Shown: positions 19,567-37,318 of the stretch, piece after piece
Layout: every line of letters begins with the position of its first letter
How positions within the stretch are numbered: the first letter of the stretch is position 1
IMG/VR virus record: IMGVR_UViG_3300045974_000132
Coordinates: 124,001-188,000 of that record
Source: a virus
DNA length: 64,000 nt
Reading direction: 5' to 3' (one strand)
Program-made: the position numbers and the translations under genes
The notes under the pieces: model-generated
What the model was told of the DNA's origin: nothing
The model's database searches: none
Seen by the model: only the letters and a program-made list of their open reading frames with translations

Positions 19567-19772
19567 TACTTATCTCCGAATTTTTGCTGAGTCAAAGAAC
19601 CCAAGATTCGATTAGCTTCAGCCGCTGCTTGAGCAGATTGAGTGGCAACCAAAGTTAGTCCATGAATATCATCAGGAGTCAAAGGGCGTTTTGATAAACG
19701 GACGGCTGTTTTCTTTGCTGCAAGTATAGACGTAACAAGCTCTACCATTGCTCGATCATTACGGGTAGCCAT
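19566..19772 (-). CDS. Small protein, tandem paralogue of the 19372-19566 gene
   Basis: 68 aa from ATG 19772. Helical with the shared ATQ-x-x-QAA core described for its neighbour. The start lies one base past the stop of the small membrane peptide gene upstream, indicating a tightly coupled operon. Confidence 0.65.
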   Translation of the reverse strand: MATRNDRAMVELVTSILAAKKTAVRLSKRPLTPDDIHGLTLVATQSAQAAAEANRILGSLTQQKFGDK

Positions 19773-19773
19773 T

Positions 19774-19905
19774 TTAGTGACCCAAGACACGCATACAGTA
19801 AAAGAAAGAATTTGTCTCTCGACACTCGTTCCACATACTTACTTCATACCATATAGCGAGAGCAACTACTAAAGCAGTACCTACAATTGGGAGGACATTT
19901 TTCAT
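19774..19905 (-). CDS. Small single-pass membrane peptide, 43 aa
   Basis: ATG 19905 overlaps the upstream stop codon (ATGA). The peptide begins MKNVLPIVGTALVVALAIW, a clear hydrophobic helix, followed by a short polar tail with three Cys. Could be a spanin-like or envelope peptide, but nothing specific supports that. Confidence 0.6.
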   Translation of the reverse strand: MKNVLPIVGTALVVALAIWYEVSMWNECRETNSFFYCMRVLGH

Positions 19906-20180
19906 TTGCGATTCCTTTGTTTGGATTTCTTAGCTGCTTTACGCTTTGCCTTAGCATCAGACTTCTTTACGTGCTTACGGTTGTTACCGAAGCGAATAGG
20001 TTGGTCATCACCGTTGAAGTCATCGTCTGAAGACTGACAAGGAGCAGTCTCGTCCTCTCCAAAGTAGTCATCTTCAGGTTCTTTATAAGCAGGCTCAGAA
20101 GTGGATTGTTCTGCCTTCTGTGCTTCTTGGTATAGTCTAGCCGACTGCGAATCAAGATTAAACCACGGTTCATTGTTCAT
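19902..20180 (-). CDS. Small protein with acidic middle and basic tail
   Basis: 92 aa beginning MNNEPWFNLDSQ. Residues 30-60 are rich in Asp/Glu, and the last 28 are Lys/Arg-rich ending KKSKQRNRK. The same start (NNKPWYDPEL) and end (KQSKRRNRK) appear in the out-of-frame tail at 20177-20264, so the two regions are related by duplication. Confidence 0.65.
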   Translation of the reverse strand: MNNEPWFNLDSQSARLYQEAQKAEQSTSEPAYKEPEDDYFGEDETAPCQSSDDDFNGDDQPIRFGNNRKHVKKSDAKAKRKAAKKSKQRNRK

Positions 20181-26437: not shown

Positions 26438-26728
26438 CTATTTTATATAGAACAGCTTACCGAAGTTGGCAATGTTCAAAGCTTTAAGAACGTCGCCTTT
26501 AGCATTAATCAACCTGATATTAACTCCAGGGAATCGGTCACGCGCTATTAAGATCATTCCTAAAGCGGAACTATCTAAATAGGTACATTCTGTTAGGTCT
26601 AAGTCTAAGGTAGTGCAACCAATTAATTTTAAAAGATTGGTTCTAAAATCATTATGGCAATTAAAGGTAAATCTACCTTCAGTGTATAAGGTAGCTGATC
26701 TACCCTCAAAACGAGTACGAAATTGCAT
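26438..26728 (-). CDS. STAS-domain protein (anti-sigma-antagonist-like)
   Basis: 96 aa, a single STAS domain: beta strands then LDLDLTECTYLDSSALGMIL, the signature around the phosphorylatable Ser (DSSALG), and LINAKGDVLKALNIANFGKL. In bacteria such proteins bind anti-sigma factors or regulate signalling. No cognate kinase/phosphatase is seen nearby. A hairpin covers its start codon and holds a promoter-like motif (26725-26772), so it should be expressed late. Together with GGDEF-EAL and HDOD genes it adds to a host-signalling toolkit. Confidence 0.88.
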   Translation of the reverse strand: MQFRTRFEGRSATLYTEGRFTFNCHNDFRTNLLKLIGCTTLDLDLTECTYLDSSALGMILIARDRFPGVNIRLINAKGDVLKALNIANFGKLFYIK

Positions 26729-26772
26729 GATACTTCCCCTTTATTGTTCTTAAGGCTAAATTAGTATCATGC
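26725..26772 (-). promoter_or_regulatory. Start-codon-masking hairpin with promoter-like motif
   Basis: Minus-strand GCATGATAC (26764-26772) pairs with GTATCATGC (26725-26733), which contains the ATG of the STAS gene. The motif TACTAATTTA (26757-26766) begins at the end of the 5' arm. RNA started at the motif loses the 5' arm, freeing GGGGAAG and the ATG. Confidence 0.7.
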
Positions 26773-26793
26773 AAATGTCGCGGTCTTGTACGT

Positions 26794-27186
26794 TTAGGAA
26801 GCTACATGGATTACCAGGTAGTTAATCACATCCTGGCAGGTCTTCCAACCCATTGCTGTGTCATCGTCAACTTCAATATCGAAAGTCTCTTCAATGTCCA
26901 TCAGCATTTCAATCTGATCTAAAGAGTCGGCACCTAGTGAATCAAAGGTCGCATCCAGCTTTAAGTCAGTAGTGCCCATCCATTCCTTTGCACAACGTTT
27001 GAGTTCAGTAAAGAGGCGCTCCTTCTTTATTTCAAACTCTTCAATACCTACGGGTGCAACAGAAGGGTCTTCAGCAACTTCGTATTTGGGTTTTTGTTCT
27101 TCTTTCTTGCCCCAAATACGTTCATAGCCCTCGCGGGAGGCATCATTAGCAGCTTTGGAATGTATTGTCATTTCTGGTTGTACCAT
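26794..27186 (-). CDS. Acyl carrier protein with N-terminal extension
   Basis: 130 aa. The last 75 residues are an ACP four-helix bundle: FDSLGADSLDQIEMLMDIEE carries the Ser that takes phosphopantetheine, followed by FDIEVDDDTAMGWKTCQDVI. The N-terminal 55 residues are charged and not part of the ACP fold. The start is either ATG 27186 or ATG 27171, which overlaps the upstream stop. A second phage ACP is at 46224-46496. ACP needs a host transferase for activation; substrate unknown. Confidence 0.88.
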   Translation of the reverse strand: MVQPEMTIHSKAANDASREGYERIWGKKEEQKPKYEVAEDPSVAPVGIEEFEIKKERLFTELKRCAKEWMGTTDLKLDATFDSLGADSLDQIEMLMDIEETFDIEVDDDTAMGWKTCQDVINYLVIHVAS

Positions 27187-32446: not shown

Positions 32447-32686
32447 CTAACCAGACCCCATTGCAAAGCTACCCACTACACGTAGCTCTTTTGTCTCAAC
32501 AAGCTCTGTGCAGGTTGTACGGGATTTATCGTCCCAGATACCCGGATAGTCACTGCTCGGGAATTGAATATCTGCCCAACCGCAGGCACCACTTTCATTA
32601 CCTGCTTCGACTAGCACCATATGAGTACGGTCATACGGCATTTCGTTGAACTCTTTATCTGTTATCTGCAACAAGAAGAAAGGCAT
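32447..32686 (-). CDS. Hypothetical protein, 79 aa
   Basis: ATG 32686 with GGAG, overlapping the hemerythrin gene by 32 nt. Pattern MPFFLLQITDKEFNEMPYDR suggests a small beta-sheet protein. Its overlap with the hemerythrin gene suggests joint expression. Confidence 0.6.
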   Translation of the reverse strand: MPFFLLQITDKEFNEMPYDRTHMVLVEAGNESGACGWADIQFPSSDYPGIWDDKSRTTCTELVETKELRVVGSFAMGSG

Positions 32687-33107
32687 TTTGATGCTCCGAC
32701 GTTTGGGTAGAGTGGCTCTTAAGCCAAGGTATAAATTGTGCGTCATCTACTAGGATGTGCTTTGTCAGCCAGTCAACAACAAGAGTACGCAACTCTTCTA
32801 GGATGCACGTACTAGCATCAATGAACAAAGGTCGAGAAATCTGCTCGAACAGGTTGTCAAGCTGATACGTCAAGGCACGATGTTGCATTACATGACTAGC
32901 GTATCCTTCCCACCCTTTAATTAGTTCTTCTTCATGTTTAAGATGCGTCCATACGTATTCGTACAACTCTGCGGCAATATCAAAAGAACTTAGCAAAGAA
33001 GTTCCGTTTAAGATAGCTTCCAGCCTATTACTAAGGTAGAACAACTTGATATGTTCTTCGTCAATAACAGGAACACCTAAAAGGTAGCTTTCGACAGAGA
33101 TAGTCAT
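32655..33107 (-). CDS. Bacteriohemerythrin-like oxygen-binding protein
   Basis: 150 aa. Hemerythrin di-iron ligands are present in order: VPVIDEEHIKLF (His in helix A), YVWTHLKHEEELI (His and Glu), HVMQHRALTY (His), and WLTKHILVDDAQFIPWL (HxxxD). Length matches single-domain bacteriohemerythrins that bind O2 or NO. Such genes are rare in phages. Possible roles are oxygen or redox sensing and supply under microaerobic conditions; it is not fused to a signalling domain. AAGGAC ribosome site. Confidence 0.9.
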   Translation of the reverse strand: MTISVESYLLGVPVIDEEHIKLFYLSNRLEAILNGTSLLSSFDIAAELYEYVWTHLKHEEELIKGWEGYASHVMQHRALTYQLDNLFEQISRPLFIDASTCILEELRTLVVDWLTKHILVDDAQFIPWLKSHSTQTSEHQNAFLLVADNR

Positions 33108-33124: not shown

Positions 33125-33206
33125 CACACTTACAGTAGCACACTATCTTAGTTTGAATGTCGGCTCTTATAACAATCTATATAGATAATGTGCTTTCGTA
33201 AGTGTG
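33125..33206 (-). ncRNA. Stem-closed element upstream of the hemerythrin gene
   Basis: CACACTTAC (33125-33133) pairs with GTAAGTGTG (33198-33206), with additional inner helices AGCACA/TGTGCT-like and TATCT/AGATA. It ends 18 nt before the hemerythrin ATG, so it may be a leader structure or the 3' end of the tmRNA region. Confidence 0.45.
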
Positions 33207-33431
33207 CCGCTCACCTATTTTGGTAATAAGGACTCCGTCATTATCAGGAGAGTGAGCGGCTTAACAAACCAAAGTCTGTTAGTGACCCCATCCGTTTAGG
33301 TGCTGTTAGGCAGCCTTCCGGAAAGACGCATCATTCGCGGCAATTACAAGTTTAGCCCGGTTTAACGAGAGTACAATGCTCGGATCGTTCTTTATCAACT
33401 ACTCATGCCCAATCGAAACCAGGTCAGGCCC
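33206..33431 (-). ncRNA. ssrA: Permuted tmRNA, coding piece
   Basis: The 5' end GGGCCTG (33425-33431) is followed by a tRNA-like D region ACCTGGTTTCGAT, the signature of tmRNA 5' ends. A resume GCG (33336-33338) opens a tag frame reading ANDASFRKAA then TAA (33306-33308). GGGCCTG pairs with CAGGTCC of the acceptor piece, with the G3-U70 wobble needed for alanylation. The 3' limit is uncertain; a 9-bp stem (GCCGCTCAC/GTGAGCGGC, 33206-33260) may be its last pseudoknot or a separate terminator hairpin. Confidence 0.82.
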
Positions 33432-33508
33432 ATCAGGATCGTTCTATGTATCACCCACCCCGGTGACCTCAGCCTTGCGGTAGGACCTTTCGGCACACAG
33501 AACGATTT

Positions 33509-33600
33509 TGGTGGACCTGGGGAGAATCGAACTCCCGTCTTGAACACTTTTATTTCAAAAGTCTCATAAGCAAAGTTGTTCCGGTAGCTAATCGGCTTTA
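33509..33600 (-). ncRNA. ssrA: Permuted tmRNA, acceptor piece
   Basis: The 3' end has a perfect T arm (GGGAG TTCGATT CTCCC), acceptor strand CAGGTCC, A73 and encoded CCA (33509-33511). No matching 5' acceptor strand lies upstream, where the PEP-CTERM gene ends at 33647; the match is downstream at 33425-33431. This acceptor-before-coding order defines circularly permuted tmRNA, processed to two pieces. The 77-nt spacer would be removed. The 5' limit is approximate. Confidence 0.8.
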
Positions 33601-33646
33601 CTTACATACGATCATATTCCTTAACACGCCAATGATTACGTGTTAG

Positions 33647-34180
33647 TTAAGACCTACGCTTGATTGACATAAAGCCGATCATACCAAGGCCGGCAAACAT
33701 CATAGCGTAGTTCTCAGGTTCGGGCACAGAAGAAATGACGCTTGCTGCGATAGGAGCAACAAGTGACGCATCAATGTGACCGCCCAAAGCTTGGAAGGCA
33801 CCTACTTGATTACCATATAGTGTCAGCACAAACGGTGACTTGGTATTAACAGAGATAACACCAAAGTCAAAGCCCGGACCAGTAAGGATAGGGGCGCCGA
33901 AAGCACCATTCAGATTAGTCTTAGACCAATCAATGTTCAAGCCAGAACCACCGAAAGAGGATACAACATGATACGTACCCAGAACAGCAGTAGTCGGTAG
34001 CGTAAACGTAAATACGTCAGAGCCACCATCAAGAACAGAAGGTCCAAAGTTGGCGAAGTCAGCAACGTAACTCTTGGAAGCTGTGTCAAAAGACAAGCCA
34101 GAAGAACTATCCGATGCCCAAGCGCCTTGCAAACCCATTGACAGAACAAGGGCAACAAGCAGAGTTTTAAACCACTTCAT
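33647..34180 (-). CDS. PEP-CTERM domain secreted protein
   Basis: 177 aa from ATG 34180 (GGGAG upstream). A signal peptide (MKWFKTLLVALVLSMGLQ, cleavage after AWA) leads to a beta-rich exported domain with SDVFTFTLPTTAVLGTY, resembling FxDxF-type PEP-CTERM proteins. The C-terminus VPEPENYAMMFAGLGMIGF then KRRS is the canonical PEP-CTERM sorting signal: Pro-Glu-Pro, hydrophobic helix, basic end. Host exosortase would process it in exopolysaccharide-producing bacteria. Highly unusual in a phage; likely acquired from the host. Two homologous RNA elements and a tRNA-Ala lie upstream. Confidence 0.9.
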   Translation of the reverse strand: MKWFKTLLVALVLSMGLQGAWASDSSSGLSFDTASKSYVADFANFGPSVLDGGSDVFTFTLPTTAVLGTYHVVSSFGGSGLNIDWSKTNLNGAFGAPILTGPGFDFGVISVNTKSPFVLTLYGNQVGAFQALGGHIDASLVAPIAASVISSVPEPENYAMMFAGLGMIGFMSIKRRS

Positions 34181-34237
34181 TAAGAAATACTCCCTAGGTG
34201 AGTTGAAAAGAAATTTTATTATGTAAGTAAAATTGGG

Positions 34238-34345
34238 GAGAAGTGCTTGCCCTACTACTAAGAGGCTCGAAATGGACGATGAAACCAAAGCGAGATACAG
34301 GCTATTTTGAAAGTCGCCGAGACGACTTGTTAGCAAGCACTTCTC
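34238..34345 (-). ncRNA. Structured RNA element, copy 1
   Basis: Closed by a perfect 13-bp stem (34238-34250 with 34333-34345). The minus strand contains a hairpin AGTCG-TCTCGG-CGACT, then AAATAGCCTGTA and TTTGGTTT. The same order and sequence occur in copy 2, so this is a conserved motif. It lies 57 nt upstream of the PEP-CTERM start codon. No known RNA family recognised. Confidence 0.6.
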
Positions 34346-34455: not shown

Positions 34456-34530
34456 TGGTTGAGGATGACGGGATCGAACCGACGACCCTCTGCTTGCAAG
34501 CAGAGGCTCTCCCAACTGAGCTAATCCCCA
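34456..34530 (-). tRNA. tRNA-Ala(TGC)-like with 6-nt anticodon loop
   Basis: Acceptor TGGGGAT/ATCCTCA with G3-U70, the alanine identity pair; D arm GCTC/GAGC; T arm with TTCGATC; encoded CCA. The anticodon arm TCTGC-TTGCAA-GCAGA has a 6-nt loop, one T short of a normal TGC loop. Anticodon could be read TGC (Ala) or GCA (Cys), but G3-U70 supports Ala. T stem has one mismatch. Function may be impaired. Confidence 0.75.
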
Positions 34531-37242: not shown

Positions 37243-37318
37243 TGGTGCCCTGTGTCTGAATCGAACAGACGACCTCTCGCTTACTAGGCGAGTGCTGCTA
37301 CCTCTGAGCTAACAGGGC
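37243..37318 (-). tRNA. tRNA-Thr(AGT)
   Basis: Acceptor GCCCTGT/ACAGGGC, D arm GCTC-type, anticodon stem CTCGC/GCGAG with loop CTAGTAA (anticodon AGT), T arm GTCTG/CAGAC, encoded CCA. A34 in a threonine tRNA is rare in bacteria. Confidence 0.9.

What the first reader, a model, noticed from the sequence alone, without database searches (positions are those of the whole stretch)
33206..33600. Phage-encoded circularly permuted tmRNA with tag ANDASFRKAA
The acceptor T arm and CCA come first, the tRNA-like 5' end with the tag frame comes second, and the acceptor strands pair (GGGCCTG/CAGGTCC with G3-U70). Permuted tmRNA is known from a few bacterial lineages including some betaproteobacteria; in a phage it is exceptional. 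It could support ribosome rescue during takeover or mark host proteins with a phage-specific tag.
Basis: partly seen in the sequence, partly recalled or inferred. Interest (0 to 1): 0.9.

Follow-up and report, generated by a model that had tools for sequence, protein, structure and literature searches.

The report
Jumbo phage two-piece ribosome-rescue RNA gene
A giant bacteriophage carries its own intact gene for a two-piece ribosome-rescue RNA (tmRNA), a kind of phage gene already described in 2022; the unusual detail is that the tag it would add to unfinished proteins ends in Lys-Ala-Ala rather than the usual Leu-Ala-Ala.

Summary
On the minus strand at about 33206-33601, ARAGORN and Rfam RF04321 (89.3 bits, E 8e-16) both call a circularly permuted tmRNA: T arm and CCA first, 77-nt spacer, then the tRNA-like 5' end and tag (A)ANDASFRKAA. 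The acceptor stem pairs fully, with G3:U70. The record is a complete 286-kb jumbo phage, distantly related to Lu11, PaBG, HRDY3 and NCTB. It has no SmpB, SspB or ClpP match, so the RNA would need host SmpB and proteases. 'Exceptional in a phage' does not hold: two-piece phage tmRNAs were described in 2022 (PMC9004378), and one pattern scan found 70 more viral contigs. I also found unannotated ones in Achromobacter, Xanthomonas and Tunturiibacter phages. New here: (1) the tag has Lys at -3; of 41 distinct viral permuted tags 31 end LAA, 4 MAA, 3 KAA. In 84,980 prokaryote genomes the same pattern found one permuted KAA gene, in a prophage, and three one-piece ones. (2) The ends of the removed spacer pair in 69 of 75 permuted genes, extending the acceptor stem. 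Function is inferred. Verdict: new member of a known kind, with an unusual tag.

The parts
33206..33601 (-). permuted tmRNA gene (ssrA), whole; the outer ends are approximate
   Evidence: ARAGORN tmRNA* 33215-33601; RF04321 33306-33571, 89.3 bits; 3' end extended to the closing inverted repeat at 33206 (sequence)
33509..33601 (-). acceptor piece (comes first in the transcript): 5' extension, T arm, 3' acceptor strand CAGGTCC, ACCA
   Evidence: ARAGORN 3' tRNA domain at gene positions 55-93; T loop TTCGATT; CCA encoded
33432..33508 (-). 77-nt spacer between CCA and mature 5' G, expected to be removed in the two-piece RNA
   Evidence: between the two ARAGORN tRNA domains
33495..33506 (-). spacer helix, 5' arm ATCGTTCTGTGT
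   Evidence: pairs with 33438-33449 (12 pairs, one G-U); 0 of 200 shuffles as good; the same kind of helix in 69 of 75 permuted genes
33438..33449 (-). spacer helix, 3' arm ACATAGAACGAT
   Evidence: as above; also in the MFE fold
33405..33431 (-). 5' tRNA-like domain of the coding piece (GGGCCTG acceptor strand, TGGTTTCGA D-loop-like segment, start of the long helix that joins the two pieces)
   Evidence: ARAGORN 5' tRNA domain; RF04321 alignment
33306..33341 (-). tag reading frame GCC GCG AAT GAT GCG TCT TTC CGG AAG GCT GCC TAA = (A)ANDASFRKAA*
   Evidence: ARAGORN; pattern match 33306-33420, none in 100 shuffles
33206..33260 (-). inverted repeat GCCGCTCAC / GTGAGCGGC closing the 3' end of the coding piece
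   Evidence: sequence; paired in the MFE fold, whole region z = -2.8

Best explanation
It is a complete, probably functional phage-encoded permuted ssrA gene. Shown: the gene anatomy, the paired acceptor stem with G3:U70 and CCA, the intact tag frame, and a spacer whose ends pair. Inferred: the transcript folds with the acceptor stem continued, across an internal loop, into the spacer helix. Host tRNA-processing enzymes cut at both edges of the spacer, giving an acceptor piece and a coding piece held together by base pairing. Host alanyl-tRNA synthetase charges it. Host SmpB delivers it to ribosomes stalled on broken messages, expected to be common during infection. Ribosomes are freed and unfinished proteins get a tag ending ASFRKAA. 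The tag most likely still leads to degradation by host ClpXP, perhaps with altered efficiency: the ClpX degron of MuA, RRKKAI, also has Lys at -3. The phage thus keeps rescue capacity high with an RNA of its own lineage.
For: RF04321 over full length, 89.3 bits; ARAGORN, none in 500 shuffles. G3:U70 and seven acceptor pairs. Across 73 viral permuted genes, acceptor pairs 4:69 (GC, CG, TA) and 5:68 (CG, AT, GC, TG), which the search pattern left free, always pair. Spacer-end helix in 69 of 75 genes with 51 distinct arm pairs. The tag keeps the conserved AND start and AA end. Genome complete and without SmpB, SspB or ClpP matches; 23 other viral records with permuted tmRNA lack SmpB too. ClpX degrons: MuA RRKKAI, ssrA AANDENYALAA (PMC8138137).
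Against: No RNA or protein data. The closest relatives found by terminase (HRDY3, NCTB, Lu11, PaBG and related contigs) have no permuted tmRNA, so conservation within its own phage group could not be shown. Two outer pairs of the long helix are mismatched in the Rfam alignment. No convincing promoter was found: one weak site against 2.2 expected.
Confidence: 0.8

Rival explanations
1. Working tmRNA with a remodelled tag: the phage keeps ribosome rescue but the tag (K at -3) escapes or slows ClpXP, so that unfinished phage proteins are spared or host proteolysis is not overloaded.
For: KAA is rare: 3 of 41 distinct viral permuted tags, against 31 LAA. Among Burkholderiales, the LAA-type pattern matched 118 of 200 genomes and KAA 1 of 399, that one a prophage gene. 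In the species genomes scanned only one permuted KAA gene (the prophage) and three one-piece ones. The KAA tags of the window and L084 lie on separate branches of the viral tree, and any Leu codon needs at least two base changes to become AAG.
Against: The MuA degron RRKKAI shows that Lys at -3 is compatible with ClpX. Only three distinct KAA phage tags are known here. The pattern covers only TAA-ending tags with an AN(D/E)-like start.
Confidence: 0.25
2. Relic or passenger: an ssrA gene picked up from a host, decaying or neutral.
For: Phage relatives examined lack it; core identity to any other permuted gene is at most 62%.
Against: All functional parts intact; both pattern-free acceptor pairs and the spacer helix preserved despite about 40% divergence. 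The tree places it with phage genes, nearest Achromobacter phage JWDelta (support 0.79), not with the two bacterial permuted genes.
Confidence: 0.1
3. Chance or software artefact (a tRNA-like T arm next to an unrelated frame).
For: None found.
Against: E 7.7e-16 and no call in 500 shuffles.
Confidence: 0.01

Closest known systems
Two-piece tmRNA of methylophage Melnitz and other marine phages (PMC9004378)
   Same: phage-encoded permuted ssrA
   Different: Melnitz's is of alphaproteobacterial type and has a glutamine riboswitch (paper). Here the spacer is 77 nt and the tag ends KAA; the Rfam scan of the window reports no riboswitch.
Permuted tmRNA of Achromobacter phage JWDelta (unannotated in KF787094.1, 19736-20120)
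   Same: nearest in the core tree (support 0.79); long spacer with a helix at its ends; 10-aa tag ANDDYIRLAA
   Different: 207-nt spacer; LAA end; a 73-kb phage of Schitoviridae rather than a jumbo phage
Bacterial permuted tmRNA of Burkholderiales (L116, L117)
   Same: same gene order; match the same Rfam model
   Different: spacers 43 and 30 nt, tags ANDERFALAA and ANDENFALAA
Prophage permuted tmRNA in Hydrogenophaga aromaticivorans (L085/L092)
   Same: permuted; tag ends KAA (ANESTFLKAA); small terminase gene nearby
   Different: 3-nt spacer; its host has a separate one-piece tmRNA (200.6 bits)

Membership tests
permuted (two-piece) tmRNA, Rfam RF04321 | full-length match to the covariance model above the curated cut-off | tested here: met
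   89.3 bits against 47, positions 1-213 of 213
permuted (two-piece) tmRNA, Rfam RF04321 | acceptor/T-arm part precedes the tRNA-like 5' end and tag in the gene | tested here: met
   ARAGORN permuted call and segment map
permuted (two-piece) tmRNA, Rfam RF04321 | acceptor stem with G3:U70 (alanine identity) and CCA | tested here: met
   GGGCCTG/CAGGTCC, ACCA
permuted (two-piece) tmRNA, Rfam RF04321 | tag frame with resume codon and stop | tested here: met
   GCC GCG AAT ... GCC TAA
permuted (two-piece) tmRNA, Rfam RF04321 | processing into two pieces | not testable with these tools
   needs RNA-seq or northern blot
canonical ssrA degron | C-terminal Leu-Ala-Ala (or a similar hydrophobic residue at -3) | tested here: not met
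   ends Arg-Lys-Ala-Ala; function as a degron not tested
self-contained trans-translation system | SmpB partner encoded with it | tested here: not met
   no PF01668 match at E <= 1 in the complete genome; host SmpB must be used

The most novel reading that the evidence does not exclude
Some phages carry permuted tmRNAs of their own lineage whose tag end has been remodelled (KAA) so that rescued proteins are handled differently from host-tagged ones, separating ribosome rescue from the host's degradation route.
Probability: 0.2. Interest if true: 0.6.

Novelty: new member of a known kind. Interest (0 to 1): 0.36.

Why it matters
Phage-borne permuted tmRNAs turn out to be common in viral contigs and often unannotated, including in isolated phages. 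At least one occurs in a host with a one-piece tmRNA (a Hydrogenophaga prophage, shown here). That gives isolates in which the role of a phage tmRNA can be tested. If the KAA end alters degradation, it would show a phage tuning the fate of rescued proteins rather than only adding rescue capacity.

Tried and rejected
Artefact or chance: rejected. 'First permuted tmRNA in a phage': rejected by literature and scans. 'The phage brings its own SmpB or protease': SmpB, SspB and ClpP not found. 'KAA unique to this phage': rejected; also in L084/L086 and a Hydrogenophaga prophage, plus three one-piece bacterial genes. A single sequencing error behind the Lys: unlikely, since every Leu codon needs at least two changes to become AAG. 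Conservation within its own phage group: not testable, as the relatives found lack the gene. ARAGORN's tags for JWDelta (a 27-residue frame) and L015 look wrong; JWDelta was re-read by hand as ANDDYIRLAA. L003 and L045 were left out of the stem counts because their segment maps were garbled near contig ends. Promoter and terminator scans gave nothing above chance. No held paper uses the phrase 'phage-encoded tmRNA'. A 2025 jumbo-phage paper with many mentions of tmRNA concerns islands integrating at host tmRNA, not phage tmRNA.

Full report
CHECK OF THE OBSERVATION. ARAGORN calls a permuted tmRNA at window 33215-33601 on the minus strand with tag AANDASFRKAA, and Rfam's RF04321 tmRNA_permuted matches 33306-33571 over all 213 model positions at 89.3 bits, E 7.7e-16. 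ARAGORN makes no tmRNA call in 500 shuffles of the same 600 bases. The acceptor strands GGGCCTG and CAGGTCC pair at all seven positions with G3:U70, followed by ACCA. The tag frame is GCC GCG AAT GAT GCG TCT TTC CGG AAG GCT GCC TAA.

THE CARRIER. The window is bases 124001-188000 of a 286,393-base virus record with a 127-base terminal overlap, hence a complete genome, 43.7% G+C. It has large terminase, portal, baseplate wedge, tail fibre, DNA ligase, UvsX-like recombinase, topoisomerase and ribonucleotide reductase genes. Its terminase is 40-45% identical to those of Pseudomonas phages HRDY3, Lu11 and PaBG and of Phage NCTB. Those four records and the related contigs have no RF04321 match. The host is not known. 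A PEP-CTERM protein just upstream and the nearness of the tmRNA to that of an Achromobacter phage suggest a betaproteobacterium (inference).

HOW COMMON IT IS. The claim that a permuted tmRNA is exceptional in a phage does not hold. PMC9004378 described the two-piece tmRNA of phage Melnitz in 2022 and counted 53 two-piece among 133 distinct phage tmRNA structures; PMC11915505 lists 79 bacteriophage tmRNA sequences of all forms. One pattern scan of IMG/VR returned 70 more contigs, nearly all called permuted by ARAGORN. Unannotated permuted tmRNAs were also found in Achromobacter phage JWDelta (tag ANDDYIRLAA), Xanthomonas phages Rb1 (ANDDNFRPALRLAA) and X1 (ANDADYSVARYA), and Tunturiibacter jumbo phage Tunturi_5, whose likely tag is a long one ending RAFAMAA.

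STRUCTURE UNDER SELECTION. In 73 viral permuted genes, acceptor pairs 4:69 and 5:68, which the search pattern left free, occur as GC, CG, TA and as CG, AT, GC, TG, and always pair. G3:U70 was fixed by the pattern in most of them and so is not independent evidence there. The two ends of the spacer between CCA and the mature 5' G pair with each other in 69 of 75 genes (p <= 0.05 against base shuffles), with 51 different arm pairs; in most the helix starts right after CCA and ends 4 nt before the 5' G. In the window the helix is ATCGTTCTGTGT / ACATAGAACGAT, at 33495-33506 and 33438-33449. The acceptor stem and spacer helix would thus be joined by an internal loop made of ACCA and a short leader. 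Many of these sequences are related, so the 51 arm pairs are not 51 independent events. One of two bacterial permuted genes examined shows a similar helix, so this is not a phage invention.

THE TAG. Of 41 distinct tags in viral permuted genes, 31 end LAA, 4 MAA and 3 KAA (a few of the rest are doubtful ARAGORN frames). The KAA tags are this one, ANDELFLKAA on two phage contigs (one with endolysin and nucleotidase genes), and ANESTFLKAA in a Hydrogenophaga prophage with a small terminase gene. A scan of 84,980 species genomes with the KAA pattern gave four real KAA tmRNAs: that prophage gene and three one-piece genes (Rhizobacter, a Syntrophaceae and an unnamed proteobacterium). In Burkholderiales the same pattern with a Leu-type codon at -3 (YTN, which also admits Phe) matched 118 of 200 genomes, and with K 1 of 399, the prophage again. 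The pattern demands an AN(D/E)-like start and a TAA stop, so counts are lower bounds. The two sets are sampled differently, so the contrast is suggestive, not a measured rate. The ClpX degron of MuA is RRKKAI, with Lys at -3 (PMC8138137), so KAA need not block degradation.

MECHANISM. Shown: gene order, stems, tag frame, absence of SmpB, SspB and ClpP matches in the complete genome. Inferred: processing at the spacer edges by host tRNA enzymes, charging by host alanyl-tRNA synthetase, delivery by host SmpB, release of stalled ribosomes, and addition of a tag handled by host ClpXP. None of 23 other viral records with permuted tmRNA carries SmpB either. The Hydrogenophaga host has its own one-piece tmRNA alongside the prophage's permuted one, and only 4 of 100 Burkholderiales genomes pass the RF04321 cut-off, one of them through this prophage. 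So at least that phage-borne permuted gene is not a recent copy of its host's gene. The short-alignment tree places the window's gene with phage genes, nearest JWDelta (support 0.79); that support is modest.

VERDICT. The finding is real, correctly described, and an ordinary member of a known kind (phage-encoded permuted tmRNA), with one unusual trait, Lys at -3 of the tag, whose meaning is open.

Noticed in passing
window 33647-34336 (-): A secreted-type protein with a C-terminal PEP-CTERM sorting signal (PF07589, 21.4 bits; VPEPENYAMMFAGLGMIGFMSIKRR) encoded by the phage immediately upstream of the tmRNA; it would need a host exosortase.
   Followed up: partly
window 32655-33107 (-): A hemerythrin-domain protein (PF01814, E 7e-10) encoded immediately downstream of the tmRNA.
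   Followed up: partly
window 26438-27186 (-): A STAS-domain protein and an acyl-carrier-type protein (phosphopantetheine attachment site) next to each other.
   Followed up: no
window 34456-34530 (-): A tRNA-Ala(UGC)-like gene with G3:U70 whose anticodon arm is one base short (6-nt or 8-nt loop; ARAGORN gives a four-base anticodon tgca); possibly frameshifting or defective.
   Followed up: partly
window 37243-37318 (-): tRNA-Thr with anticodon AGT (A34), unusual for a bacterial or phage threonine tRNA.
   Followed up: no
Tunturiibacter phage Tunturi_5 (PP885688.1), 157899-158195 (-): Unannotated permuted tmRNA in a jumbo phage of an acidobacterium, with a likely tag of up to 34 residues ending RAFAMAA.
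   Followed up: partly
Xanthomonas phages Rb1 (PQ569993.1, 16300-16605) and X1 (OQ427096.1, 121009-121337): Unannotated permuted tmRNAs with tags ANDDNFRPALRLAA and ANDADYSVARYA; the latter does not end in AA.
   Followed up: partly
Achromobacter phage JWDelta (KF787094.1), 19736-20120: Permuted tmRNA not annotated as such, with a 207-nt spacer closed by a 13-bp helix.
   Followed up: partly
L085 / L092 (Hydrogenophaga aromaticivorans prophage): Permuted tmRNA with almost no spacer (3 nt between CCA and the 5' G) and tag ANESTFLKAA, in a host with its own one-piece tmRNA.
   Followed up: partly
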